Positions 6,000 to 19,557 of a DNA stretch of 61,259 bases are shown here, in pieces (positions within the stretch are counted from its first letter, which is position 1; each line of letters opens with the position of its first letter). The notes below the pieces were generated by a model. It saw only the letters and a program-made list of their open reading frames with translations, did no database searches and was not told the DNA's origin. Source of the stretch: Nitrospiria bacterium (GTDB taxonomy: Bacteria; Nitrospirota; UBA9217); the NCBI GenBank assembly GCA_919902495.1, contig CAKKRC010000053.1, positions 1-61,259 of the forward strand. The letters are read 5' to 3'. The position numbers and the translations under genes were made by a program.

Positions 6000-7349
6000 A
6001 TGGAAAATTCCCGAGAGGCGCGATTCTGGCAACAGGCGAAGGATGCAAAACAGGTAAAGTGTCAGCTGTGCCCCCGCGGGTGCAGCCTGGACGACGGTGA
6101 ACGCAGCTTTTGCGGCGTACGACAAAACGTGAGCGGAAGACTCCATACGCTTAACTACGGGCGATCGGTTCACGCCGCGGTGGAGACAATTGAAACAGAA
6201 GCGGTCTTCCATTTCCGTCCCGGTGCGCGTATTCTCAGTCTGGGGAACATCGGCTGTATGTTGAAGTGCTCTTACTGTCAGAACTGGGAAACATCACAGA
6301 TCGTTAATCTGAATCAGAAAAACGTCCGGGAATACTCATCGGAGCGCGTTGTCGAAATGTCTCTGGCTCATGGCATTAATATACTGTCGTGGACGTACAA
6401 TGATCCGGTCGTTTGGCAGGAGTTCGTTGTGGATACTGCGCGGCTGGCCAGTTCACATGGCATCAAGAACCTGTACAAATCCGCAGCGTATATAAATGAA
6501 AATCCATTTCTGGAGTTGTGCGATGTTATGGATGTTTTCAGCATCTCCCTGAAGTCAATGTCAAATGACTTCTATCTGAAAAACACAAAGGGCAGTCTGC
6601 TACCGGTGCTCAATGCAATCAAGGCGGCTCATGCCTCTGGAAAACATCTGGAGATCAGCAATCTGCTTGTGACTGATCTTAATGACAGTGAAGAAGATTG
6701 CCGCAATGTGGCGCGATGGGTTTTTGATACGGTTGGACCCGAGGTGCCGCTCCATTATGTGCGATTCCACCCCGCATGGCAGTACAATAGAGTGCCGCGA
6801 ACTCCTGTTGAGCGGCTGATGCGCGCCCGCGATATCGCTCGCGAGGAGGGTATCGTCTATTGCTACATCGGCAACCTCTATGAGGCCGGCGTGAGCGATA
6901 CCCATTGTCCTTCCTGCGGGAACCTGCTGGTCGAACGTTTCGGATTGACGGTTCACGCCTCAGGAGCAGATAATGAGAGCCGCTGCAAACGCTGCGGAAG
7001 GGATGTTCCCATAAAGGATCTTTTTGGTGGGAAAAAGCCAGGCGCCGAAAGCGGCGTGGTGAAGGCATACCCGAATAAAAAGGTTTTCCATTGGGATAAG
7101 GAGTATAACGGCCTTCATCTCGTGACGCCCGAGAATGAACATGAATTCGCGGAGATAATGGTTACTCACAAGCCCGCCGGGGATAGTGAGAGTATTCGGC
7201 TCGGACAAGGTATTTACCGAGCAAGCATCTCCAAGTCGAGACCGGACGAGACTGGCGTGGACATTAGTTGGGGGGCGAAGACAGATGTGAAAATATTCGG
7301 TCTCCTGGATCGTGCACATTATCCTGTAGAATTTGAAGGTGATCTCTGA
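6000..7349 (+). CDS. AmmeMemoRadiSam-type (PflA-like) radical SAM protein with a C-terminal extension
   Basis: The core resembles the radical SAM component of the AmmeMemoRadiSam system. An N-terminal cysteine block (CQLCPRGCSLDDGERSFCGVR) is followed by the cluster motif CMLKCSYCQNWETSQ, then a barrel with SWTYNDPVVW and ending HYVRFHPAW. Two CxxC pairs near residues 303-330 (CPSCGN, CKRCGR) look like a metal knot. Typical members end about there. This one continues for about 110 residues with no motif I recognise. The ATG at 6000 has an excellent AAAGGAG. It is the first gene of the island operon. The Memo partner is not in the window, and the AMMECR1 partner is 31 kb away (37640-38149). 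Function is unknown. Confidence 0.75.
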   Translation: MENSREARFWQQAKDAKQVKCQLCPRGCSLDDGERSFCGVRQNVSGRLHTLNYGRSVHAAVETIETEAVFHFRPGARILSLGNIGCMLKCSYCQNWETSQIVNLNQKNVREYSSERVVEMSLAHGINILSWTYNDPVVWQEFVVDTARLASSHGIKNLYKSAAYINENPFLELCDVMDVFSISLKSMSNDFYLKNTKGSLLPVLNAIKAAHASGKHLEISNLLVTDLNDSEEDCRNVARWVFDTVGPEVPLHYVRFHPAWQYNRVPRTPVERLMRARDIAREEGIVYCYIGNLYEAGVSDTHCPSCGNLLVERFGLTVHASGADNESRCKRCGRDVPIKDLFGGKKPGAESGVVKAYPNKKVFHWDKEYNGLHLVTPENEHEFAEIMVTHKPAGDSESIRLGQGIYRASISKSRPDETGVDISWGAKTDVKIFGLLDRAHYPVEFEGDL

Positions 7350-7386
7350 TTCGACCAATAAGACCGATGGGCGGAAATGGAGGATT

Positions 7387-8523
7387 ATGGATCCGATAAC
7401 AAGGTTATTGCATGCCCGGATTCGCAGCGATGACAACGCGAAATCTGCGGTCACTCCCCTTTACCAATGCAGCGGTTTCAGCGCGGGGTCTCCATATTTT
7501 TATACGCGAAATGACAATCCTAATATCGCAGAAGTCGAGGACGCTATCAGGGTATTAGAGGGATCCCAACATTGTTTGGCAGTGACCACCGGGATGACCG
7601 CAATATCTCTCGTCTTAAATCTGTTGCGGCCCGGCGACACGTTTGTCGTCAACAAAGACATATACGGTTGTTCTCTTAAATTGTTCCAGCGGATCAGTTC
7701 GCAACGGAACATCGGGCTGGAGATATTGGATCTTTCCCAAGAGGAAAATATCAAACAGATACCTGGTCGAACGCGGATGGTGATCTTTGAGACACCCACC
7801 AATCCCTTTCTGAAAACCATCAATATCCGGCGTGTTTCGGATCGTGTCAAGACTTTGAATCCGGAAGCGCTTGTTGTCGTGGATAATACGTGGGCCACGC
7901 CCCTTTTCCAGCAGCCATTGAAGCATGGGGCGGACATATCGCTTCACAGCGCAACTAAATTCCTCTCCGGCCACTCCGATGTGATGGGGGGGGTCTTATT
8001 GACCGAGCGGTCCGAGTTGCATAAAGAACTTCGCGAATCGCGGTTCTATGGAGGCGCCATTCTCGATCCGCATAGTGCATGGCTCTTGAGACGGAGCCTG
8101 CAGACCTTTGGACTCCGTATGGCTGCGCATAAAGAAGCGACGCTCGCGATGCATAGTTTTCTTGAAAAGTGTTCCCCCGTAGCCCGGGTATATTATCCTG
8201 ATATTGATGGCAAGCAGTTGCTTGGGTACGGAGGAATCCTTTTTGTTCAGCTCAGAGATGATTTGGCCGATCGATATCCCGAGTTTATGAATGCCCTGAG
8301 GTTGTTCGACACCGGAACAGCAATGGCTTGCGTGACCTCCATGGTGGCACAGCCTTATACTGGCAGCCATGCTTCCTTGACGGAGGCGGAAAAGTCGTGC
8401 ATGGGGTTGAAACCTAGCCTTGTGCGGCTTTGTTTTGGGCAGGAAAATGTGGAAGATCTCAAAAGCGATCTTGCCCAGGCCTTTGCAGTCCTCGAATCAG
8501 GCATATCGCACAATAAGGCCTGA
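7387..8523 (+). CDS. Cys/Met metabolism (trans-sulfuration) PLP-dependent enzyme
   Basis: A 378-residue fold-type I PLP enzyme of the cystathionine gamma-synthase / methionine gamma-lyase family. The PLP lysine lies in SATKFLSGHSDV, with VVDNTWATPLFQQP upstream holding the Asp that contacts the pyridine nitrogen and FETPTNP before that. The family performs gamma-substitution or elimination on homoserine esters, cystathionine or methionine. An ATG at 7387 follows GGAGG at short spacing. The gene sits directly between a radical SAM gene and an LCAT-like gene, not with methionine genes, so a specialised role on a four-carbon amino acid is likely. The exact reaction cannot be read from sequence. 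Confidence 0.8.
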   Translation: MDPITRLLHARIRSDDNAKSAVTPLYQCSGFSAGSPYFYTRNDNPNIAEVEDAIRVLEGSQHCLAVTTGMTAISLVLNLLRPGDTFVVNKDIYGCSLKLFQRISSQRNIGLEILDLSQEENIKQIPGRTRMVIFETPTNPFLKTINIRRVSDRVKTLNPEALVVVDNTWATPLFQQPLKHGADISLHSATKFLSGHSDVMGGVLLTERSELHKELRESRFYGGAILDPHSAWLLRRSLQTFGLRMAAHKEATLAMHSFLEKCSPVARVYYPDIDGKQLLGYGGILFVQLRDDLADRYPEFMNALRLFDTGTAMACVTSMVAQPYTGSHASLTEAEKSCMGLKPSLVRLCFGQENVEDLKSDLAQAFAVLESGISHNKA

Positions 8524-8536
8524 AACCGGGAGGATC

Positions 8537-9931
8537 GTGTTATCCATCGCCCTGATCATCGGAATTATGTCGGTCCTTGTGATGCTAGCAAGGGCAAATC
8601 GTATTGCCTTGCGCAACCGAGTAAGGATGCGCGTACGTCTTGTCAGGCCAACGGGTCCACGCTCCACTCCCGTTATCTTCGTGCCGGGCGTTTTAGGCAC
8701 TACGATGGTAGACGCCCAGCACGAGAATTTTCCCGTTTGGGGAAGTTATAAGGGGATCTTCTTCTACAGGGACTCGTACGAGGACATGGATCTCCCTTTG
8801 ACCGAAAAGGGGGAGAACCACCTGCGGCCCGGCGAGGTGCTCTGGGATTTTCCCGTCGTACCCGGACTTATCAGTCTGCCGATATTTAGCGAGCTGGCGT
8901 CCAGCCTCGAGTCGGTTGGCTATGTACGCGATGAGGCCGCTCTCAACAACGGCAGTTGCCTCTTTTGGGGGCTCAACTATGACTGGCGACGGGGAGTCAT
9001 AGAAGGTGCCAGGAGACTCGAAGAGGCAGTGCGAACTGTTAAAAACAGCACCGGGGCTGAGCGGATCCACATGATCGGCCACTCCTGGGGAAGCACGGTC
9101 ATTCGCTACTATCTCCGCTACGGCGGGGTGGATATGTTGAATGGCGTTGATGAGCGACCGAGGCCCGGCGCGGGCAACATCAACACGTTTTTTGCTGTCG
9201 GTGCTCCCTTCGGCGGAACACTACGGGCGCTCCATGAGATCAACTGCGGTTTCGCGCCCGCCGGTCCGCTAGGGAGGTCTGTCATGCCGCATCACATGGC
9301 GTCGGCTCCAGTTGCCTATCAGCTCCTTCCTTTCAATGTGAATAAAGCGATAGACGATTCGGGTGCATCACGGAATCTTGACCTTGCTGAAGTGGAGACC
9401 TGGCGGCGCCATGGATGGGGTCCCTTCAGGCAAAAAACGTTCGAGGCGTTATTTCGCAGAGCTCGGAGACATGCGCCAGGACTGACAAGGATCGAAATGG
9501 AATCCATTGCTGATGGCTTTCTTCGAAAGTCGCTCGCCGCGGGACAGCGGTTATGGGAGTTAATGGGCGAAAGAAACAGTCTTGATAAGAATGTTCGCAC
9601 GGTCGTCTATGCCTCCGACAACCGGCCGACTTTGACCCATGCGGTGATGCGCGGGTCTGAGGTGCTGGCAACGTCCGATCTGGTCCGGCGAAATGCACCC
9701 GGCATGTTCGATCGTGTTACGGAGCCTGGAGATGAGTATGTACCGTTCAGCCAGATCAAAGAATATTTCGACGGCTTTTCAATAATCAACGACCATCTGC
9801 ATACCCCGGACGGCAGCTATATTTGCCTCGTGGACGCGCCCAGCCACCGCGACCTGCTGAAACAGGGCCCCCTGCTCGATAACCTGCTCCTGAACGTCTG
9901 CTCCGCAAGGAGGGGACGGTTGTGGATGTAA
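8537..9931 (+). CDS. LCAT/PDAT-like acyltransferase or phospholipase with N-terminal membrane anchor
   Basis: An alpha/beta-hydrolase of the lecithin:cholesterol acyltransferase family. After a hydrophobic N-terminal segment (about residues 3-20) comes the family's oxyanion region IFVPGVLGTTM, then the nucleophile elbow GHSWGS (Ser183), a possible acid in GDEYVP and a possible His in SHRDLL near the C-terminus. LCAT-type enzymes move an acyl chain from a phospholipid to an alcohol, or simply hydrolyse it. The membrane anchor suggests it works at the inner membrane, probably on the periplasmic side. The start is uncertain: GTG 8537 has a strong GGGAGGA but only 2-3 bases away, and earlier in-frame starts overlap the preceding gene. 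Confidence 0.75.
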   Translation: MLSIALIIGIMSVLVMLARANRIALRNRVRMRVRLVRPTGPRSTPVIFVPGVLGTTMVDAQHENFPVWGSYKGIFFYRDSYEDMDLPLTEKGENHLRPGEVLWDFPVVPGLISLPIFSELASSLESVGYVRDEAALNNGSCLFWGLNYDWRRGVIEGARRLEEAVRTVKNSTGAERIHMIGHSWGSTVIRYYLRYGGVDMLNGVDERPRPGAGNINTFFAVGAPFGGTLRALHEINCGFAPAGPLGRSVMPHHMASAPVAYQLLPFNVNKAIDDSGASRNLDLAEVETWRRHGWGPFRQKTFEALFRRARRHAPGLTRIEMESIADGFLRKSLAAGQRLWELMGERNSLDKNVRTVVYASDNRPTLTHAVMRGSEVLATSDLVRRNAPGMFDRVTEPGDEYVPFSQIKEYFDGFSIINDHLHTPDGSYICLVDAPSHRDLLKQGPLLDNLLLNVCSARRGRLWM

Positions 9932-11076
9932 GAAAGTTATCGAAGATAATGAATGGACCCTTGTCGGAAGCTCATCCCTTCACGTGGAAGCTGCTCGGAC
10001 AAAGTCCTCTCTATGAAATCGGCGAACTGAATGATGACATGTATGCAGCTGCAATGAAGGAAAACACGATCTGGCATTATGAAAAGAACGAGACCTATCG
10101 CGCTTATTGCTGCCATCTCAAATTCGATCCGAGGGACCTCTTGGAGAGCGCTGATATCGGTAGAATTCCAGCGCTTTCTGCCGACCTTTTTAAACACTTC
10201 GACCTATCCGGTCCACACGCTCCCGGAGCTCTCACCGTGAGCTCGAGTGGGACCTCGGGTCGTCCGACTACGCTTTCCTTGGACGAGGAAACGATTATCC
10301 GTATGTGGAAAATGGGCAGGGCAACGTTCGAGGCGGAGGGGCTTGTGAGTCTCTCGCCGGTCCACTATCTGATCTTCAGCGCGGACCCGAAAAGATCGCC
10401 ACATTATGGAAATTCACTCTTTTTTTCTTCACTCGTGGAGTTTGCACCTGCGATGGATGTAACATACGCGGTCGAGCCGGCTTCCGATGGTGTTTTCCGG
10501 TTGAATCACACAAAAGCGATCGAGCTCTTGCAACGAGCTTCGGGGGCTGGTGAGCCGGTGCGCATAATTGGACTGCCGGCTTTGATTTCTTCTTTTGCTT
10601 TCGATGCTCCTCCTGGACAAGTGCGATTGAATCCAGAATCGCTGGTTTTGACCGGGGCCGGTTGGAAGACGAACATGCATACAGCCATGTCGAAAACCGA
10701 ATTTCGGGATTTGCTCTGCCAGATATGGGGATTGTCGCACGATCGTGTCCGTGACCTCTATGGCATGACCGAACACGCTGTCCATTATCTCGATTGCCCA
10801 GAACATCACTTTCACGCACCGATTTTCTCCCGAGTGAGTATCATCGATCCGTTGACCTGCAGACCCGTGCGAGAAGGAGAGCCTGGAGTGATCCACCTTA
10901 TGAATCCGGGTTTCACAAGCATGCCGCTGCAATCATTGAAGACTGCTGACGTTGGGCGGACTGTCCTTTGTGCCTGCGGTAGAAAAACACCCGCATTCGA
11001 GCTCATAGGCCGCGGCGGCAGATCACGATTTCGCGGATGTGCAGCGACGACATTGGACAGGGTGCGACATGCATAG
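9922..11076 (+). CDS. luxE: LuxE-like acyl-protein synthetase
   Basis: A 384-residue member of the LuxE family, a branch of the adenylating enzymes. LuxE activates a fatty acid with ATP and passes it through a cysteine to the LuxC reductase. The AMP/ATP loop SSGTSGRPTTLS is clear, and YGMTEH gives the second adenylation motif. The GTG start at 9922 lies 8 bases after AGGAGG and overlaps the end of the LCAT-like gene. LuxC follows with an 8-base overlap, so the two should be made together. No luciferase genes (luxA, luxB) are in the window. The aldehyde is therefore probably an intermediate in another pathway. Confidence 0.82.
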   Translation: MDVRKLSKIMNGPLSEAHPFTWKLLGQSPLYEIGELNDDMYAAAMKENTIWHYEKNETYRAYCCHLKFDPRDLLESADIGRIPALSADLFKHFDLSGPHAPGALTVSSSGTSGRPTTLSLDEETIIRMWKMGRATFEAEGLVSLSPVHYLIFSADPKRSPHYGNSLFFSSLVEFAPAMDVTYAVEPASDGVFRLNHTKAIELLQRASGAGEPVRIIGLPALISSFAFDAPPGQVRLNPESLVLTGAGWKTNMHTAMSKTEFRDLLCQIWGLSHDRVRDLYGMTEHAVHYLDCPEHHFHAPIFSRVSIIDPLTCRPVREGEPGVIHLMNPGFTSMPLQSLKTADVGRTVLCACGRKTPAFELIGRGGRSRFRGCAATTLDRVRHA

Positions 11077-12391
11077 TGCATTTCTTTTTGGAGATTGGGA
11101 GCAGAATTTTATCTTGTCCGAAGAGGGGATTCACCGTGTCATAGCTCTTGCGAGGGATCGCAGGGACACCCTGAGGAAGACGCCGGTGAAGAATATTTGC
11201 AGGGCGATCGAAAGGCTCTCACCGTTGTGGTCTGCCGAAGGCTCTTACCGGAAAGAGTACCTGATGACGGGGCCGGAGAAGACGCTCGGATTGAGCGTCC
11301 CGATGATCACTCTGGGTTTGGACATATTTGCGGCATCGCTGGATGAAGGGGAACTTGTGCATAGGCTGGACCAGCAACTTGGCGGGTATGGTTGCGTGGA
11401 CGCATTTGTTGAACGGGGCGGGCGAAGTTATCGGGCGGAGCCGCTCGGTGTTGTTCTGCATGTGGCAGCTGGAAACATAATCTTCGGTCCTGCTGAATCG
11501 CTCTTTGCCGGGCTGCTTACGAAAAACGTAGGTATAATCAAGGCCCCTGCCGGTGGATGGGATTTCCTCAGACTTCTTGTCAAGTCCCTCAATGAAATAG
11601 CGCCGGACATTGCCCGTACTATTGGACTGTTGTATTGGCCCGGGGGAGAGGAGTCTACGGAGCGTGCCATGGTATCCGGTGTTGACGGGGTTCAGATCGC
11701 CAGCGGTGCTGAGGCCATCTCCGCCTACCGCCGATATGCTCTGCCTCATACGGCGTTGATCGAATTCGGCCCGCGCGCGAGCCTGGCCGTTATCTCCTCA
11801 GACGCGGCGGATCGTGTGGACATGGACGGACTTGCGCACGACGTCGCTCTCTGGGAACAGACTGCTTGTACTTCAGCTCAGTGCATCTATGTCGAAGGTG
11901 AAGAGAATGCAGCAAAGGTGGCTGATCGGCTCTCCGTCGCGCTCCGTGATCTTTCCGCCCGTCTCCCGGAAGGGAATGTCACGCTCGATGAACGAATAGA
12001 TATTGCGCGTATGCGTGAACTATCGTCCTTTGGAACGATTCAGGGAAGATCGCGTCTCGTTTCTGCTTTTCCGGACAGCACGACTACCGTCGTTCTTGAG
12101 ATGGATCCCGACTTTGAATTTTCCCCACTCCGCCGATGTGTGCGCGTAAAGTCCTATAAAACACCTGATGAACTTACAGGCGCTCTTGAGCCGTTACGAG
12201 GAATACTGCAAACAGTCGGTCTGGCCGTAGATGTGCGGGAATTCCCCGACTATAGGGACCGGCTCTGTGCTGCAGGAGTCCGGCGCATTTGCAGGATTGG
12301 ACGGATGAATCAGCCCGGTACCCAAGCGATACGGGATGGTGTATTGGAACTGCAGCGCTTGGTGCGCTGGGTGGAGGTAGACGGGGCGTGA
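11069..12391 (+). CDS. luxC: LuxC-like acyl-CoA/acyl-protein reductase
   Basis: A 440-residue member of the LuxC family, which reduces an activated fatty acid to an aldehyde with NADPH. Signatures are the central block GVVLHVAAGNIIFGPAES, FGPRASLAVIS, and the catalytic cysteine in WEQTACTSAQC (Cys267). It overlaps luxE by 8 bases at its start, and its TGA stop overlaps the GTG of the next gene. Together with LuxE it should form a fatty-acid reductase that yields a long-chain aldehyde. In this operon the aldehyde could be a substrate for a radical SAM enzyme, the downstream dehydrogenase, or a condensation step (inference). Confidence 0.83.
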   Translation: MHSAFLFGDWEQNFILSEEGIHRVIALARDRRDTLRKTPVKNICRAIERLSPLWSAEGSYRKEYLMTGPEKTLGLSVPMITLGLDIFAASLDEGELVHRLDQQLGGYGCVDAFVERGGRSYRAEPLGVVLHVAAGNIIFGPAESLFAGLLTKNVGIIKAPAGGWDFLRLLVKSLNEIAPDIARTIGLLYWPGGEESTERAMVSGVDGVQIASGAEAISAYRRYALPHTALIEFGPRASLAVISSDAADRVDMDGLAHDVALWEQTACTSAQCIYVEGEENAAKVADRLSVALRDLSARLPEGNVTLDERIDIARMRELSSFGTIQGRSRLVSAFPDSTTTVVLEMDPDFEFSPLRRCVRVKSYKTPDELTGALEPLRGILQTVGLAVDVREFPDYRDRLCAAGVRRICRIGRMNQPGTQAIRDGVLELQRLVRWVEVDGA

Positions 12392-14721
12392 AAAAGCAGT
12401 TTAGCCAAATGAAAGTACGCGGCCTGGATGGTGGAGTCGTAATCCACTTCGATCATGTTGGGATGCCCCATATCAAGGCTGAATCTCAACGCGACGCATA
12501 TTTCGCCCAAGGGTATGCGATGGCAGAGGCACGCCGTTGGCAGCTCGATCTCTACAGGCGCACTGCGGGGGGATTGCTGGCCGAATGTTTTGGAACTTCT
12601 GCGATGCAGGGCGATCGGTTCCAACGGAAACTCGCGCTACAGCGACTATCTGTGGAAAAGACGATTAAACTTGCAGACGCCGTCCGCGAACGGATCGAAG
12701 TGTATGCGCAAGGTATAAATTACTGGACGGATACCAACCCGCTGCCCGAGGAGTTCAATATCCTGGGTATATTGCCCATACCCTGGACCGTGTCCGATTC
12801 CATGCTCGTCGCCGAATTGCGATCTGTAATAAATGCATCCTGGAGAGCGGACCTGATTCTTCTCCAAGTCATGGCAAAAACCGACCCTGAAAAGGTCAAG
12901 GTCCTTTTCGCGAATTATCGCATGCCGGATTCCGGTGCAGAGACGCTCGCATTTCCCGGATTCGACAAAGGGGTATTTCAGGAATGCCTTAGCATAGTCA
13001 GCGATAGTGAAGATGCGCTCAAACTCCTTGGACTGCAGCACAGCGACAGCGGAACGAATACCTGGGTTGTGGATGGCAGGCGTACTCATCATAAGAAACC
13101 CCTCCTGGCAAATGATCCACATATGGGATATGTTGCGCCAAATCCCAATTTTCTCGTTCATCTGAAGGCCCCCGGATTGAATGTGAGGGGCATTTGTTTC
13201 CCTGGTATGCCCGGCGTGCTGGCCGGTCATAACGACCGCATCGCCTGGGGGGCTTCAGCTTTTATGGCTGACTCTCAGGATCTTTTCGTTGAGGAATTCA
13301 ATAAAAGTGGAGACTGTTATAAGTTCAGGGACCAATGGCTTCCGGTGGATATTACCGAGGAGGTCATCCGTGTGCGGGGCGGGAAAGAAGAGGCCTTCAG
13401 GGTGAAACGGACCCATCATGGGGCTATTGTCTTCGAAGAAGGACAATGGGGTTTGGCCCTCTGTTGGGAGCGCTTGAACCTTCCACCCGGAGATCCGACT
13501 TTCCACAAAGTTAATACAGCTCGTGACTGGCACTCATTCCGTGAGGCTTTCCGCGACTACACCGGACCTTCAAATGACTTCTCCTTTGCGGACGTGGACG
13601 GCAACATCGGGATGCAGGCCGCGGGACGTGTCCCCATTCGTGCCGGCGGAGATGGAGCTCTTCCTGCACTAGGACGCGACGGGCACTATGAATGGATCGG
13701 ATTTATCGAATTCGATGATCTTCCGACGTCATATAATCCTGATTGTGGATTTATCGTGAGATCAAATCAGGCCCATAGCGCCGGACACAGCCGGTTTCAC
13801 TTTTCACACCGATGGCACCCACCCTATAGGGCAAGAAGGATCAAAAAACTCCTGGTCGATCCTACCCTTGACCACTCGGTCGAGGGGATGAATCGAATAC
13901 AGAGGGATCGTTTCTCCTACCACGGCGAGTTTCTTTGCAGAAGGATATTGGACGCGATCAAAGAGGAACCCCTTGTCGGTATTTATGCCGAGGCGAGAAA
14001 GCTGATGATGCAATGGGATTACCTACTGCTTCCGGACAGTACAGCAAGCTCGATCATCAAGGAATGCGCCGCCGTGGTAAAGGCAAAATTGATAGTGCCG
14101 CCGCTGGGAAAACAGCTCTTTTTTGCCTATCAGCAGAGCTGGCCGAGTACCAATGCTGCGGTCGAAGGGATCCTCGGCTACCGGGATCCAAAATGGCTTC
14201 CTGATGGCTTGGCGGACTACGAAATGCTCTATCGAAACGTCTTTAAAACGGCCGTCGATAATCTCCAAAAATCATTCGGACCGGAGATCACGGAGGTCTG
14301 GGCCTGGGGCGCGCACTGTCGGGCAGGCTTTCCCCATCCGCTGGAATCGATGTCGGGGGATTGCTCACGGTTTGCCGTTCCCCTCGTGGAGGTCGGGTCT
14401 GATGGCGAATGTGTATTCTCATCGCGGAGCGTCGGCGACTATGTCTCAGCGCAGCAGTCCGTTATGATGGATCCCAAAAAAGGGCGCGTCGCTATCTTCG
14501 GTACATCGGCCCGTTTCATATATGATCTCGGCGATTGGGAGAATTCTTCGTTGCTTCTGAACCTGGGGCAGTCCGGAGGTCCCGGTAGCCCTCATTATCG
14601 TGACCAGCTCGAATTCTGGAGAACAGGCACGCCAATGAAACTGCCCTTCGCGTGGGACTCGGTTGAAAAGGCATCGGTGCGAACTGTCCTGCTTGTCAAA
14701 GATGGTGCCGCGGGGCCCTGA
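12388..14721 (+). CDS. Penicillin acylase family Ntn-hydrolase with a threonine at the nucleophile position
   Basis: A 777-residue member of the penicillin amidase / acyl-homoserine-lactone acylase family. These are made as one chain and cut so that a Ser becomes the N-terminal nucleophile of the beta chain. The usual G-S-N-x-W appears here as G-T-N-T-W (Thr223), so the nucleophile would be threonine. Other family blocks are intact: LLANDPHMGY, AGHNDRIAWG, and ADVDGNIGMQAAGR. No signal peptide is visible, unlike the periplasmic relatives. The GTG start at 12388 follows GGAGGT by nine bases and overlaps the luxC stop. A role in hydrolysing or forming an N-acyl amide of the pathway product is plausible. 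Confidence 0.85.
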   Translation: MKKQFSQMKVRGLDGGVVIHFDHVGMPHIKAESQRDAYFAQGYAMAEARRWQLDLYRRTAGGLLAECFGTSAMQGDRFQRKLALQRLSVEKTIKLADAVRERIEVYAQGINYWTDTNPLPEEFNILGILPIPWTVSDSMLVAELRSVINASWRADLILLQVMAKTDPEKVKVLFANYRMPDSGAETLAFPGFDKGVFQECLSIVSDSEDALKLLGLQHSDSGTNTWVVDGRRTHHKKPLLANDPHMGYVAPNPNFLVHLKAPGLNVRGICFPGMPGVLAGHNDRIAWGASAFMADSQDLFVEEFNKSGDCYKFRDQWLPVDITEEVIRVRGGKEEAFRVKRTHHGAIVFEEGQWGLALCWERLNLPPGDPTFHKVNTARDWHSFREAFRDYTGPSNDFSFADVDGNIGMQAAGRVPIRAGGDGALPALGRDGHYEWIGFIEFDDLPTSYNPDCGFIVRSNQAHSAGHSRFHFSHRWHPPYRARRIKKLLVDPTLDHSVEGMNRIQRDRFSYHGEFLCRRILDAIKEEPLVGIYAEARKLMMQWDYLLLPDSTASSIIKECAAVVKAKLIVPPLGKQLFFAYQQSWPSTNAAVEGILGYRDPKWLPDGLADYEMLYRNVFKTAVDNLQKSFGPEITEVWAWGAHCRAGFPHPLESMSGDCSRFAVPLVEVGSDGECVFSSRSVGDYVSAQQSVMMDPKKGRVAIFGTSARFIYDLGDWENSSLLLNLGQSGGPGSPHYRDQLEFWRTGTPMKLPFAWDSVEKASVRTVLLVKDGAAGP

Positions 14722-14725
14722 GAGG

Positions 14726-15913
14726 ATGGACTTCGGTATGATAGACGTTCTTGGATCGATCGCAAATACCATTGTCGGGAATAAGAATGCAGGCCTATTT
14801 CTGCGAAGATTTCGATCCGAATATGGAACACGAAAACTGCTAGCGTTTCTGAAAAGGGCCGTTGTCGAAAATATGCTTATTGGGAGGCATCTTCGCTGGA
14901 AGGCCGAGCGAAACTACGGTTTCTCCCCCGGCCTGCAAATAACATTTACGCCTCTTTCAAAATGCAATCTTACGTGCGCAGGATGTTATGCAGAAACGTA
15001 TTTCAACGATGAACAGCTCGATCCATCGGTCGTTTCACGGGTGATCGACGAAGGCAAGCGAATGGGAATACGCTCATTTGCGATACTTGGCGGTGAACCG
15101 TTCCTCTGGAACGGGTTGTTCGAAGTATTAACGTCAAATCCGGACGTCCTGATCACTATTGTTACGAACGGCACCTTGATCGACGATGAGGTGGCACAAC
15201 AACTGGCAGAGGCCGAAAATGCCTTCCCTTTTTTAAGCATTGACGGCTTCAAAGACCGGAACGACGCTTGGCGCGGTGAAGGCGTATATGACAGGGTTGT
15301 GAGCGCAATGGCCAGCCTGAAAAGACACCGCGTCCTCTTCGGTTTTTCCGTGACCGTGACCACAGATAATTTTGATGAAGTGAGTTCAGCGGCGTTTGTA
15401 GACTTTCTCATCGAAAAGGGGGCCTACTACGGCGCCTATTCTCCATGGGGACCGGCAGGCCGCAATCCCGGATTTAAATACCTGCTGACCGATCGTCAGG
15501 TAGAAGATCTTTTCGAACGTCTTGGACTGCTGGAGAAGATCCGTCCGATCTTTTTTCATAAAGAAGGCCATTACGACGGAACTTCCCTGAATCGTGGCTG
15601 CGGGGCCGGTCGTGTGGTGAATATTATGCCGGATGGCTCCATAGCGCCCTGCAACGCGATACATTTTTCAACCGGTGATGTTCGAGTTCAATCGCTCGCC
15701 GATATCCTTAATCACCCGTTCTTAAAAGCGATCCGCACACATGCTGATTCCGACCCGCATCATCGTTGTGTCGGCCTTTTTCATGCGCAAGAAACGCTGG
15801 ATATTGCGAGAGGCAGCGATGCCAAACCGACGAATCCTCAGGTCCCTTGCCGCATGCAGGATGTCGCAAACTACCTTAAGACCAGAAAGAACGCCGACAA
15901 AGAGACGGCTTGA
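14726..15913 (+). CDS. Radical SAM/SPASM-like enzyme
   Basis: A radical SAM protein of about 395 residues. The cluster motif is CNLTCAGCYAE. It is followed by the glycine-rich SAM contact LGGEPFLW and the barrel strands TIVTNGTLID and LSIDGF. The C-terminal third has RGCGAGRVVNIMPDGSIAPCN and later cysteines, as in SPASM/twitch domains that hold an extra iron-sulfur cluster. The N-terminal 70 residues before the motif may contact the membrane or a partner. The start is either ATG 14726 or ATG 14738; neither has an ideal ribosome binding site. It lies 4 bases after the penicillin acylase stop and just before the DUF3419 gene, so a lipid-like substrate is a reasonable guess. Confidence 0.8.
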   Translation: MDFGMIDVLGSIANTIVGNKNAGLFLRRFRSEYGTRKLLAFLKRAVVENMLIGRHLRWKAERNYGFSPGLQITFTPLSKCNLTCAGCYAETYFNDEQLDPSVVSRVIDEGKRMGIRSFAILGGEPFLWNGLFEVLTSNPDVLITIVTNGTLIDDEVAQQLAEAENAFPFLSIDGFKDRNDAWRGEGVYDRVVSAMASLKRHRVLFGFSVTVTTDNFDEVSSAAFVDFLIEKGAYYGAYSPWGPAGRNPGFKYLLTDRQVEDLFERLGLLEKIRPIFFHKEGHYDGTSLNRGCGAGRVVNIMPDGSIAPCNAIHFSTGDVRVQSLADILNHPFLKAIRTHADSDPHHRCVGLFHAQETLDIARGSDAKPTNPQVPCRMQDVANYLKTRKNADKETA

Positions 15914-15920
15914 ATTCTTC

Positions 15921-17063
15921 ATGCCGAAAAGAGGAAACGTGAAAAAAGATGCGCTGCAATACGCGAATTGCTGGGAGGATGCGGATATCCTTCTTTTGGC
16001 GCTGAACGTAAGAACGAACGGGACCTATCTATCCGTGTCATCAGCCGGGGACAATACCCTGAGCCTATTGACCCAAAGTCCGTCAATGGTGGTTGCCGTT
16101 GATATCAGCGGCGCGCAACTTGCGAGCCTCGAATTGCGTAAAGCTGCTTTTTCAAGGCTGTCCTATGAGATGCTGCTGCAATTCCTAGGGATAAAGAACG
16201 GTATAGACAGGTTAGAAGTCTATTCCGGCATTCGCAGCGAGATGTCTCAGGACTCGAAACGTTACTGGGATGGTCATAAAGCAGATTTGATGAATGGTCC
16301 TATCCATTCCGGCAAGCTGGAACGGTACTTTACTTTGCTCAGAACATACGTTTTGCCGTTAATCCACAACAGGAAAAGGGTGCTCAAGCTATTGACACCG
16401 AAAAGCGAGGATGATCGCCGTACCTATTATCATGAGCAATGGAATAATTCCCGCTGGCGCATGATGTTTCAATTGTTCCTTCATCGTGTTCCGATGCGAT
16501 TTGTCAGCCCGAATCCCGATCTGTTTAAATCCAAGAACTGTGATTTTTCAAAGCAGATGTATTTGCGAGCGGAACATGCATTAAGCGTCCTGCCGGTGCA
16601 TGCAAATGCATATCTGGAGTATATCCTTACGGGCAATTACCAACAGTCCCTCCCGTTCTATTTGCGCCACGAGAATTATGAACGTATCCGCAAAAACCTG
16701 GACAAGCTTGTCATCTTCAGGGGAGGCGTGCACAGCGCGTTGAAACATTATCAGCGGGTGGTCTTCGACGGGTTTAACTTGTCCAATATATTTGAGGATA
16801 TGAGTTACGATCAGTACCAAAAGGAACTGCAGTTGATCCTGAATTCTTCGGGACGGGGAACTCGTTTGGTCTATTGGAACCAGATCGTCGACCGCCGATG
16901 TCCGGAACACCTGGTGGACAGGCTTTTGCCTGACAGGGCGCGAGCGCTTGAGCTTTTTGCGCAAAATCAGACGTTCTTTTACAAGGCGTTGATTATTGAA
17001 GAGGTGCTTGGTGGGTCAAGAACATCATTGCCAGGAGATAATCCGCAATCCCCTGCTCATTAA
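15921..17063 (+). CDS. DUF3419 (BtaA-like) S-adenosylmethionine aminocarboxypropyl transferase
   Basis: A 380-residue protein with the full DUF3419 pattern: YANCWEDADILLLAL at the N-terminus, the SAM-binding strand VSSAGDNTLSLL, VVAVDISGAQLASLEL, then GKLERYFTLLR and WNNSRWRMMF. The named member BtaA moves the 3-amino-3-carboxypropyl group of S-adenosylmethionine onto diacylglycerol, giving the homoserine head group of betaine lipids. The BtaB-type N-methyltransferase that completes betaine lipids is not seen next to it. An ATG at 15921 starts the conserved part; a longer ORF would overlap the upstream gene. It is the last gene of the island operon and ends 25 bases from a convergent gene. 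Confidence 0.85.
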   Translation: MPKRGNVKKDALQYANCWEDADILLLALNVRTNGTYLSVSSAGDNTLSLLTQSPSMVVAVDISGAQLASLELRKAAFSRLSYEMLLQFLGIKNGIDRLEVYSGIRSEMSQDSKRYWDGHKADLMNGPIHSGKLERYFTLLRTYVLPLIHNRKRVLKLLTPKSEDDRRTYYHEQWNNSRWRMMFQLFLHRVPMRFVSPNPDLFKSKNCDFSKQMYLRAEHALSVLPVHANAYLEYILTGNYQQSLPFYLRHENYERIRKNLDKLVIFRGGVHSALKHYQRVVFDGFNLSNIFEDMSYDQYQKELQLILNSSGRGTRLVYWNQIVDRRCPEHLVDRLLPDRARALELFAQNQTFFYKALIIEEVLGGSRTSLPGDNPQSPAH

Positions 17064-17087: not shown

Positions 17088-18434
17088 TTAAACCGATCGG
17101 ATCTGCTGGTGGCCTGCCTTGCTCCTGATAAAGGGACCTCTCTTTTCATCCCAATGATTAAAAACGCAGCCGCAGACAAGCTCGCCGTCGGGACTCATAT
17201 GTTTTGTCGTGCAATAGGCCAGTCTTTGCTTATCCTGATAGTATTCACCCATGAATTGTTCGATCGCTACGATCAGGAGTGAATGCGATCCTCTCTGCGT
17301 AATGAAGCCAAACAGCATCCTTACCAATCTGGGGATCTTGGTAAATCGTACTGACCGTGAAAGGTATGACAGGAACAGCAATTTGCTTAGAAAAAAATTG
17401 GGTTTTGCCCGGGATCTGCTCGAGAGGCGGTACAGTTTATCGATATACAGGATGTTCTCTAATGGTTCGATGCCGTTGCCGGATACGGCCAGATATAATA
17501 GAGCGCCGCAGTCCGGATGAATGTTAAGCAGGTAAGGATCAAATCTGGGGTAGGGCCAAAAGTTTTTGTACGTAAGCCCGGGGACCACCCCGGAGTTAAT
17601 GATGCTGTGAATAATATCTTCACGATGCACGAGGTCATCTTTCGGCAAATTGAAACGGCCTGCGGGAGCAGCCGCCTGGAATGTAACAAGAAACAGATCG
17701 GGGGCGAATCCAGCGGCATATTGCAAGATAAGACCGGCCTCATCAAGGTTGTCTCTGATGATAGTTGCTATTACCCCAAACCGGAGGCCGGACTTTTTCG
17801 CGTGCACGAGTGCCCTTTTTTTAACGCTTAAATCATCATTTCCTCTCAGCTTGAGGTGAGTAGCGCTGTTCAAGGTGTCGAATTGAACATAGAGGCAGCC
17901 TAGTCCGTTGGATTTCATCTCCTTTGGCAGATCCGGATTGTTTCCTATCATGAGGCCGTTCGTCGGCATATTGACAGTAAGGCCCATGCCAGACAAATGC
18001 CTAATAATATTCAGGAGTTGGGGATGCAGTGTCGGCTCACCGCCGGTAATGGTTATGCAGTGCAGCCCGTTTTTCTTCAAGAGAGAGGCCGATCTGACGA
18101 TTTGATCGACGTCTAGATAGACAGGATTGCTCCGCCCCCCGGATGAGGCATAACAAACAGCACAGAAACTGTTGCAGTCGTCGGTAATCTCAAGCAGGTT
18201 GGACCAGCTATAGGAGCGATCGGGAGGTTTCGATATTTCCACACTGCTTTTGTTGCGGATCTCCATGAATATCGTCGCATCTTGCGAGATCACAATTGTT
18301 TTGCTGCCTTTGGGGCAGATTACTTCAAAAACAATCTTCCCGTCAATGGATCTGATGCAGGCCTTGTGGTCCATTCCGCAATCAGGGCAATATGATTCAG
18401 TATTGCTAATGAGTGTCGAATCGTTTGTTCTCAA
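17088..18434 (-). CDS. Radical SAM protein with an N-terminal zinc-finger-like cysteine region
   Basis: About 448 residues. An N-terminal block with cysteines (CPDCGMDHKAC ... VICPKGS) looks like a small metal-binding fold. Then come the radical SAM cluster motif CNSFCAVCYAS, TITGGEPTLHP, and NMPTNGLMI. The C-terminal region has CGALLY, YCTTKH and CGCVFNHW, possible ligands for a further cluster. An N-terminal metal knot before the radical SAM barrel is also found in the MJ0619/Tes type of lipid-coupling enzymes, but I cannot align them here. The start is uncertain: TTG 18434 has AGGAG 13 bases upstream, ATG 18485 has none. It overlaps the upstream gene (ending 18406), so the two are co-translated. 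Confidence 0.7.
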   Translation of the reverse strand: MRTNDSTLISNTESYCPDCGMDHKACIRSIDGKIVFEVICPKGSKTIVISQDATIFMEIRNKSSVEISKPPDRSYSWSNLLEITDDCNSFCAVCYASSGGRSNPVYLDVDQIVRSASLLKKNGLHCITITGGEPTLHPQLLNIIRHLSGMGLTVNMPTNGLMIGNNPDLPKEMKSNGLGCLYVQFDTLNSATHLKLRGNDDLSVKKRALVHAKKSGLRFGVIATIIRDNLDEAGLILQYAAGFAPDLFLVTFQAAAPAGRFNLPKDDLVHREDIIHSIINSGVVPGLTYKNFWPYPRFDPYLLNIHPDCGALLYLAVSGNGIEPLENILYIDKLYRLSSRSRAKPNFFLSKLLFLSYLSRSVRFTKIPRLVRMLFGFITQRGSHSLLIVAIEQFMGEYYQDKQRLAYCTTKHMSPDGELVCGCVFNHWDEKRGPFIRSKAGHQQIRSV

Positions 18435-19557
18435 TTTGATATCTGTACTCCTCTCGGAATCGACGATCCTGCATTTTGCAGCCATGCCAGGATGACCGTG
18501 CAAATTCCTTGTGGCCTGACATTGAATCCCACAAGCGTGGAAGCGAACTATTTCTAATATTCCCTACGCTCATCGGATTGAAGTCACAGGGGCAAACGTC
18601 GCCATAAGGGCTGACATAAAAATAGCTGACGCCGCCTAAACAGCCGAGCCCCCTGGGGCTTTTTGCGTACGAATACGCATAGATGCCGGGATAGGAACTG
18701 TCCCGATTATATTTTTCGCTCAGCGCAATAAGGTCCTCAAGGTGCGGTTGATCTCCGATAAGATTCTGTCTGCACAGATACCCGCCGGTAGGGATGGCGT
18801 CGAAAACGATTATCTCATTTACCTTTAAGGACTTTCCCATTTCTATCAGGTTATCCAGATTGCCGTTGGCAATATCATCTTTCGTGACAACAGTCGAAAT
18901 GCCAACCAATAATTTCAGTTTCTGTGCCGCCTTGATGCCTTTAATGGCCTTCGGGAACAGGCCCGTCAGCCCGCGTTTGGCATCGTGGACCTCCGGTCGG
19001 AAAGAGTCAATGCTGACTATTACCGATGTCAGTCCGGCTGCTTTCAGATCCGCAATTCGTTCTTCGAGGAAGTAGCCATTCGTAAACATGATCACCTGGC
19101 TCAGACGTTTATTGACATAGCCGACTAGTTCAACAATATCGTCTCGAAGAAGCGGCTCCCCGCCGAGAAAATTTACGCTTGCCACGCCCAATTGCTGGGC
19201 CTGTTTAACAACGCTCTTGACCTCTTCTGTGGTCAAAAGACGGTCCTCCTTTTTCATGGAAAGGAAACTGCAATGATGGCATGAACAATTGCACTCGTCG
19301 GTTACGGCAATATTTATGAGTTCAGGAAGGCTCCTCCATTGATAGAGACTTGCAAGCCTGGTTGATATGCCATTGGTCGATGCGCTGCTGAGAACAGGGG
19401 GCGTCAGCAATGAAAATGAGGGATATCCCTTATGCCATCCGATCACCTTTTCAGAATTATGACATCGAAGATTGGTCAGCCTGATCATATCCAAATTAGA
19501 CTTTAGCCCTTTTGTAAGGAGAAGAAACAGCATCTTTATCAACGTTGTAATATTCAT
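18406..19557 (-). CDS. Radical SAM/SPASM-like protein
   Basis: A 383-residue radical SAM protein with cluster motif CNCSCHHC, SVNFLGGEPLLRDD for SAM binding and FTNGYFL and VSIDSF strands. The C-terminus has GLGCLGG ... VSPYGDVCPCDFNPMSVGN and a final cysteine, which fits a SPASM-type auxiliary cluster. The N-terminal 60 residues begin with a hydrophobic stretch (LIKMLFLLLT), so it may sit at the membrane. It is the middle gene of the minus-strand set (SDR, this gene, the next radical SAM gene). The pairing of two different radical SAM enzymes with overlapping genes suggests two successive steps on one product. The substrate is unknown. Confidence 0.78.
   Translation of the reverse strand: MNITTLIKMLFLLLTKGLKSNLDMIRLTNLRCHNSEKVIGWHKGYPSFSLLTPPVLSSASTNGISTRLASLYQWRSLPELINIAVTDECNCSCHHCSFLSMKKEDRLLTTEEVKSVVKQAQQLGVASVNFLGGEPLLRDDIVELVGYVNKRLSQVIMFTNGYFLEERIADLKAAGLTSVIVSIDSFRPEVHDAKRGLTGLFPKAIKGIKAAQKLKLLVGISTVVTKDDIANGNLDNLIEMGKSLKVNEIIVFDAIPTGGYLCRQNLIGDQPHLEDLIALSEKYNRDSSYPGIYAYSYAKSPRGLGCLGGVSYFYVSPYGDVCPCDFNPMSVGNIRNSSLPRLWDSMSGHKEFARSSWHGCKMQDRRFREEYRYQIENKRFDTH

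What the first reader, a model, noticed from the sequence alone, without database searches (positions are those of the whole stretch)
12388..14721. Penicillin-acylase-family protein with Thr instead of Ser at the autocatalytic nucleophile
All other family blocks align, but the G-S-N-x-W cleavage site reads G-T-N-T-W (codon ACG at 13054). Threonine can serve as an Ntn nucleophile in other superfamilies such as the proteasome, so the enzyme may still mature, with altered kinetics or specificity. It also lacks a visible signal peptide, which is unusual for this mostly periplasmic family.
Basis: partly seen in the sequence, partly recalled or inferred. Interest (0 to 1): 0.6.

Follow-up and report, generated by a model that had tools for sequence, protein, structure and literature searches.

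The report
Acylase with swapped serine and threonine
This bacterial amide-cutting enzyme uses threonine where almost all of its family uses serine, and comparison with relatives shows that the same swap arose many times, nearly always together with a second change (threonine lost, usually to serine) at one active-site position, which opens a natural test of why self-cutting enzymes choose serine or threonine.

Summary
Window 12388-14721 encodes a full-length PF01804 acylase, and Thr223 (ACG, 13054-13056) sits exactly at the Ser nucleophile. It is not an isolated oddity. A blind scan of about 85,000 species for G-T-N-x-W...D-P-H found nine real Thr homologues in several phyla, and two more turned up by homology. 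Among Pseudomonadota sampled without selection, 48 of 48 were Ser. The tree needs about nine switches. Orthologues 55-81% identical to Thr enzymes carry Ser, so Thr does not define one clade. The new result is a coordinated swap. Position 290 (penicillin acylase B68, just before the oxyanion-hole backbone NH) is Thr in 88 of 92 Ser enzymes, but Ser or Ala in 11 of 12 Thr enzymes, the window's included (Ser290). It is by far the best-associated of 731 other columns. In the cleanest pair (60% identical), 223 S>T and 290 T>S are the only differences at the most conserved positions. Thr enzymes keep the other hallmarks and are under purifying selection, whereas truly dead paralogues lose everything. 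Best reading: Thr is a working nucleophile, accommodated by moving a methyl group from residue 68 to residue 1. Cautions: the window protein has Asp397 at the oxyanion Asn, sits on a long branch, and nothing was measured.

The parts
12388..14721 (+). penicillin-acylase-family (PF01804) Ntn hydrolase precursor, 777 aa, GTG start, no signal peptide
   Evidence: AF2 model pLDDT 89, pTM 0.91; Foldseek TM 0.81-0.84 to D-succinylase
12373..12378 (+). GGAGGT ribosome-binding-like sequence 9 nt upstream of the GTG start
   Evidence: read directly
13051..13056 (+). Gly222-Thr223: predicted self-cleavage site and Thr N-terminal nucleophile (ACG)
13120..13122 (+). His245 (PGA B23 position), invariant in the 63-row set
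13255..13257 (+). Ser290 (TCA), PGA ThrB68 position; Thr in 88 of 92 Ser-nucleophile relatives
13576..13578 (+). Asp397 (GAC), PGA AsnB241 oxyanion-hole position
13639..13641 (+). Arg418 (PGA ArgB263 position), retained
12934..13053 (+). approximate linker/spacer before the nucleophile (residues ~183-222; lowest model confidence at 183-186). Boundary inferred
7333..8523 (+). cystathionine gamma-synthase-like PLP enzyme, upstream in the same-strand run
   Evidence: PF01053
8420..9931 (+). LCAT-like alpha/beta hydrolase (start uncertain)
   Evidence: PF02450
9922..11076 (+). LuxE-like acyl-protein synthetase
   Evidence: PF04443
11039..12391 (+). LuxC-like acyl-CoA reductase, stop overlaps the acylase start
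   Evidence: PF05893
14741..15913 (+). radical SAM/SPASM protein, downstream
15741..17063 (+). DUF3419 (BtaA-like) protein, downstream (start uncertain)
   Evidence: PF11899

Best explanation
The gene encodes a cytoplasmic Ntn amide hydrolase of the penicillin-acylase family. It most likely cuts itself between Gly222 and Thr223 and uses Thr223 (alpha-amine as base, O-gamma as nucleophile) to form an acyl-enzyme. The Ser-to-Thr change is tolerated because a second active-site residue, Thr at PGA position B68 next to the oxyanion-hole backbone, has become Ser (Ser290). The side-chain methyl has in effect moved from residue 68 to residue 1, keeping the pocket volume while one hydroxyl stays at each place. 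The same coupled switch happened repeatedly across the family, probably often by losing Thr68 first (Ser/Cys, Ser/Ser and Ser/Ala intermediates exist). SHOWN: sequence, alignment, recurrence, coupling of the two positions, purifying selection on Thr enzymes, fold prediction. INFERRED: self-cleavage, catalysis, side-chain contact between 1 and 68. SPECULATIVE: in this operon the enzyme removes or transfers an N-acyl group in a fatty-acyl pathway (LuxC, LuxE, LCAT and BtaA-like neighbours).
For: Blind pattern scan of about 85,000 species found nine real Thr homologues, from Syntrophaceae, Acidimicrobiia, Thalassomonas, Spirochaetes, Lysobacterales, Symbiobacteriaceae and an unnamed bacterium. 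The nucleophile is Ser in 48 of 48 unselected Pseudomonadota matches. Position 290: Fisher p 9.8e-11, next best of 732 columns 1.3e-4. Eight Thr/Ser contrasts were compared at the 84 columns most conserved in Ser enzymes: 290 changes in 7 of 8, no other column except the nucleophile itself in more than 3, and in L026 versus L128 (60% identical) the only differences at columns at least 90% conserved are S223T and T290S. A Thr enzyme met later (L154) also lacks Thr290. Nine switches, at least eight forced by supported branches, no bootstrap tree with a single origin. dN/dS about 0.09-0.14 between Thr orthologues. G222, N224, W226, D243, H245 and R418 are kept in the Thr enzymes of the main alignment. 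Genuinely dead paralogues look quite different. Fold model confident. Literature: Thr68 is described as present in all sequences with unknown role and bonded to the conserved Asn (PMC11241749); in the proteasome the Thr1 methyl group is what fixes the nucleophile (PMC4792962).
Against: No biochemistry. The window protein has Asp397 at the oxyanion-hole Asn, unique in the set, which may weaken or change catalysis. It sits on a long branch with no relative above about 34% identity, so purifying selection could not be tested for it directly. One Thr enzyme (L023) keeps Thr290, and L155/L156 show Ser with Ser, so the coupling is strong but not absolute. The tree-corrected sign test is 7/0/2 (p 0.016) on one row set and 5/0/2 or 5/0/3 (p 0.06) on others. 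Replacing the nucleophile Ser of E. coli penicillin acylase by Cys abolishes activity though processing continues (cited in PMC4792962), so the site is not freely exchangeable.
Confidence: 0.68

Rival explanations
1. Decaying or non-catalytic (pseudo-enzyme) acylase: Thr223 is a step on the way to loss of function, and the protein serves as a scaffold or does nothing.
For: Asp397 replaces the oxyanion-hole Asn; long branch; several Thr enzymes also vary at 241 (Q, Q, Q, H); dead paralogues do exist in this family, in Symbiobacteriaceae.
Against: Dead paralogues lose nucleophile, Asn, DPH and Arg together, whereas Thr enzymes keep them. Among the 63 alignable homologues only Ser or Thr occurs at the site, never Ala, Gly or Cys. 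Strong purifying selection on Thr orthologue pairs. The specific change at 290 is not expected under random decay.
Confidence: 0.2
2. Active enzyme, but position 290 reflects altered substrate specificity rather than compensation for the Thr methyl group; the two changes are selected together by a new substrate.
For: Residue 290 neighbours the oxyanion-hole backbone residue and the acyl pocket (literature).
Against: A shared new substrate is unlikely across so many unrelated lineages, lipoproteins, anchored and cytoplasmic forms alike; residues around the pocket otherwise differ freely between Thr enzymes (alignment).
Confidence: 0.2
3. Assembly or sequencing error at codon 223.
For: The genome is in 110 contigs with no same-species copy to compare.
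Against: The second, independent substitution at 290 matches the Thr group; the same state recurs in other genomes, including pairs of separately assembled relatives.
Confidence: 0.02

Closest known systems
D-succinylase (Cupriavidus, PDB 7eby/7ea4), peptidase family S45
   Same: best sequence (E about 1e-78) and structure match (TM 0.81-0.84); G-[S/T]-N-x-W, LANDPH, Arg and C-terminal blocks
   Different: Ser nucleophile and Thr at B68; 26% identity
Penicillin G acylase and glutaryl-7-ACA/cephalosporin acylases (PF01804)
   Same: Ntn fold, same block order, B23 and B263 positions, predicted alpha/spacer/beta layout
   Different: Thr1 for Ser1, Ser68 for Thr68, Asp for AsnB241; no signal peptide
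20S proteasome beta subunits and other Thr Ntn hydrolases
   Same: Thr as N-terminal nucleophile; the methyl group's surroundings matter (PMC4792962)
   Different: different Ntn family and active-site helpers (Lys33, Asp17); no relation at sequence level was seen
Acylase of the Methylomagnum ishizawai plasmid NRPS cluster (L006)
   Same: closest plasmid relative by identity (33.8%)
   Different: Ser/Thr type with a hydrophobic leader; different neighbourhood

Membership tests
PF01804 penicillin amidase | profile match above the curated cut-off over the full length | tested here: met
   559.9 bits against a cut-off of 21.3, residues 17-761
PF01804 penicillin amidase | Ntn acylase fold | tested here: met
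   AF2 pLDDT 89, pTM 0.91; Foldseek E 1e-53, TM 0.82 to D-succinylase
Peptidase family S45 (serine type) | Ser as the beta-chain N-terminal nucleophile | tested here: not met
   Thr223
PF01804 penicillin amidase | G-[nucleophile]-N-x-W and DPH at +20 | tested here: met
   G222, N224, W226, D243-P244-H245
PF01804 penicillin amidase | Thr at B68 | tested here: not met
   Ser290; literature calls Thr universal here
PF01804 penicillin amidase | oxyanion-hole Asn (B241) | tested here: not met
   Asp397 by ungapped local alignment
PF01804 penicillin amidase | Arg at B263 | tested here: met
   Arg418
PF01804 penicillin amidase | autocatalytic maturation to alpha and beta chains | not testable with these tools
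   needs expressed protein
PvdQ bifunctional acylase (NF051460) | curated equivalog score | tested here: not met
   33.6 bits against 950

The most novel reading that the evidence does not exclude
The penicillin-acylase family switches its catalytic nucleophile from Ser to Thr repeatedly and perhaps reversibly, through a compensating exchange with residue B68 (Ser1/Thr68 to Thr1/Ser68 or Ala68), so that a single methyl position decides between serine-type and threonine-type Ntn catalysis within one family.
Probability: 0.55. Interest if true: 0.72.

Novelty: new variant of a known kind. Interest (0 to 1): 0.6.

Why it matters
Why some Ntn hydrolases use Ser and others Thr is an open question, mostly studied by mutating the proteasome. 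Here nature has run the exchange many times inside one well-understood, industrially used family, and points to one partner residue. A two-residue mutant cycle can test it directly. It also suggests a role for ThrB68, which a recent structural survey listed as universal but without a reported function, and shows that 'serine peptidase family S45' is not strictly serine.

Tried and rejected
Close-relative scan of genome collections with the single protein: nothing. Two pattern versions with a wrong gap length found nothing even in the window and were corrected. Viral contigs: no Thr acylase. Seven of the sixteen pattern hits are chance matches, not acylases (Microbacterium twice, Lentzea twice, Solirubrobacterales, Isoptericola, K189A). 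Thr as a clade marker: rejected by the trees. Position 241 as a second coupled site: raw association (p 0.003), but the tree-aware test is even (2/1/4), so not claimed. Operon conservation: no LuxC relative in 60 related genomes; LuxC and DUF3419 relatives on plasmids lie in unrelated surroundings. The literature search found no report of a natural Thr nucleophile in this family, but the library is partial. The 1992 mutagenesis paper on penicillin acylase is not held, so its content is second-hand.

Full report
Observation. The open frame from 12388 to 14721 is a full-length penicillin-amidase-family protein. Its residue 223, codon ACG at 13054-13056, occupies the position of the catalytic serine. 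The motif is G-T-N-T-W and the conserved D-P-H follows at the usual distance. The own genome holds no second copy. The start is GTG at 12388 behind GGAGGT, overlapping the stop of the luxC-like gene. There is no room for a signal peptide, whereas nearly all relatives sampled have a leader, lipobox or anchor.

Is Thr more than a one-off? A scan of one genome from each of about 85,000 species for the nucleotide pattern of G-T-N-x-W followed by D-P-H at the right spacing gave sixteen stretches. Nine of these are real acylase homologues: two Syntrophaceae, one Acidimicrobiia, one Thalassomonas, two Spirochaetes, one Lysobacterales, one Symbiobacteriaceae and one unclassified bacterium. Two further Thr enzymes came from homology searches (L069; L154). 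In 298 unselected Pseudomonadota genomes, all 48 matches to the same motif with Ser, Thr, Cys or Arg allowed were Ser. Thr is therefore rare, but spread over several phyla.

Does it define a clade? No. Syntrophaceae relatives at 61% identity have Ser. Acidimicrobiia relatives at 58-60% have Ser. A Spirochaetes relative at about 78-81% has Ser. With the two trait columns masked, trees of 92, 93 and 43 rows need 9, 8 and 9 changes of the nucleophile. At least 9, 7 and 8 of these are forced by well-supported branches, and none of 200 bootstrap trees of the last gives one origin. Changes counted on an unrooted tree do not separate gains from losses.

The coupled position. Over 732 alignment columns, one column other than the nucleophile itself stands out: window position 290, PGA B68 (Fisher p 9.8e-11; the next column 1.3e-4). 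In eight Thr-versus-Ser contrasts, this column leaves the consensus in seven, while none of the other conserved columns does so in more than three. In the cleanest contrast, L026 and L128, 60% identical, the only differences at columns at least 90% conserved in Ser enzymes are S223T and T290S. The Thr set was chosen without regard to position 290, and the late-found L154 agrees. The tree-aware pair test never goes the other way, but its strength depends on the row set: 7/0/2, p 0.016; 5/0/2 and 5/0/3, p 0.06. The position was picked after looking at all columns, which is why the rank among columns is given beside the p-value. The exceptions, L023 (Thr/Thr) and L155/L156 (Ser/Ser), together with L068 (Ser/Cys) and L082 (Ser/Ala), suggest that losing Thr68 first is an available path; the order is inferred.

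Working or dead? Thr enzymes in the main alignment keep Gly before the nucleophile, Asn and Trp after it, D and H of D-P-H, and Arg. Orthologous Thr pairs show dN/dS near 0.09-0.14. By contrast, tandem paralogues in Symbiobacteriaceae that are plainly dead have lost the nucleophile, the Asn, the D-P-H and the Arg together. Among the 63 homologues of the first alignment, nothing but Ser or Thr stands at the nucleophile. This favours a working Thr nucleophile. The window protein itself carries Asp397 at the oxyanion-hole Asn position, which no other sequence in the set shows; this is the main reason for caution about its activity.

Structure and mechanism. An AlphaFold2 model is confident (pLDDT 89, pTM 0.91) and places Thr223 at the start of the first strand of the beta-chain core and Ser290 in another core strand. 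Foldseek's best match is D-succinylase, TM 0.81-0.84. A survey of S45 structures notes that Thr precedes the oxyanion-hole residue in all sequences, bonds to the conserved Asn, and has no reported function (PMC11241749). In the related MacQ acylase the main-chain NH of the next residue and possibly the Asn form the oxyanion hole (PMC5566955). In the proteasome the methyl group of Thr1 is held by neighbours, and a Ser in its place rotates away (PMC4792962). The simplest reading is that in the acylase family the volume near the nucleophile is filled by one methyl, on residue 68 or on residue 1, and that the two are exchanged. Direct contact between the residues could not be measured here.

Setting. 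The acylase lies in a same-strand run of overlapping genes: cystathionine-synthase-like PLP enzyme, LCAT-like hydrolase, LuxE, LuxC, acylase, radical SAM/SPASM, DUF3419. Neither the acylase nor LuxC was found in the thirteen genus and family mates searched, and the stretch is lower in GC than most of the rest of the window. It may be an acquired cluster for a fatty-acyl product in which the cytoplasmic acylase removes or exchanges an N-acyl group; this last step is speculation (about 0.35).

Verdict. A real, rare and recurrent variant of a known family, with a specific, testable coupling that appears undescribed in the literature that could be searched.

Noticed in passing
L141-L146 (Symbiobacteriaceae genomes G537-G539): Tandem acylase genes in which one partner has lost every catalytic residue (GGxAW, no DPH, no Arg) yet keeps an open frame: possible pseudo-enzyme partners.
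   Followed up: partly
window 7333-17063: Operon-like run of PLP enzyme, LCAT, LuxE, LuxC, acylase, radical SAM/SPASM and DUF3419 (BtaA-like), lower in GC than most of the window; LuxC and the acylase not found in genus and family mates: possible acquired fatty-acyl metabolite cluster.
   Followed up: partly
window 17088-19557, minus strand: Two adjacent radical SAM genes facing the operon; the first has similarity to tetraether lipid synthase Tes and TrsS, below curated cut-offs.
   Followed up: no
window 13576-13578: Asp at the oxyanion-hole Asn position; several Thr enzymes have Gln or His there, some Ser enzymes Ser.
   Followed up: partly
L023 and L024 (G107): Neighbouring paralogous acylases, one Thr/Thr type and one Ser/Thr type, in the same genome.
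   Followed up: partly
L069 (G157, Spirochaetes): Thr-type acylase with a shortened loop after the nucleophile and D-T-H in place of D-P-H.
   Followed up: no
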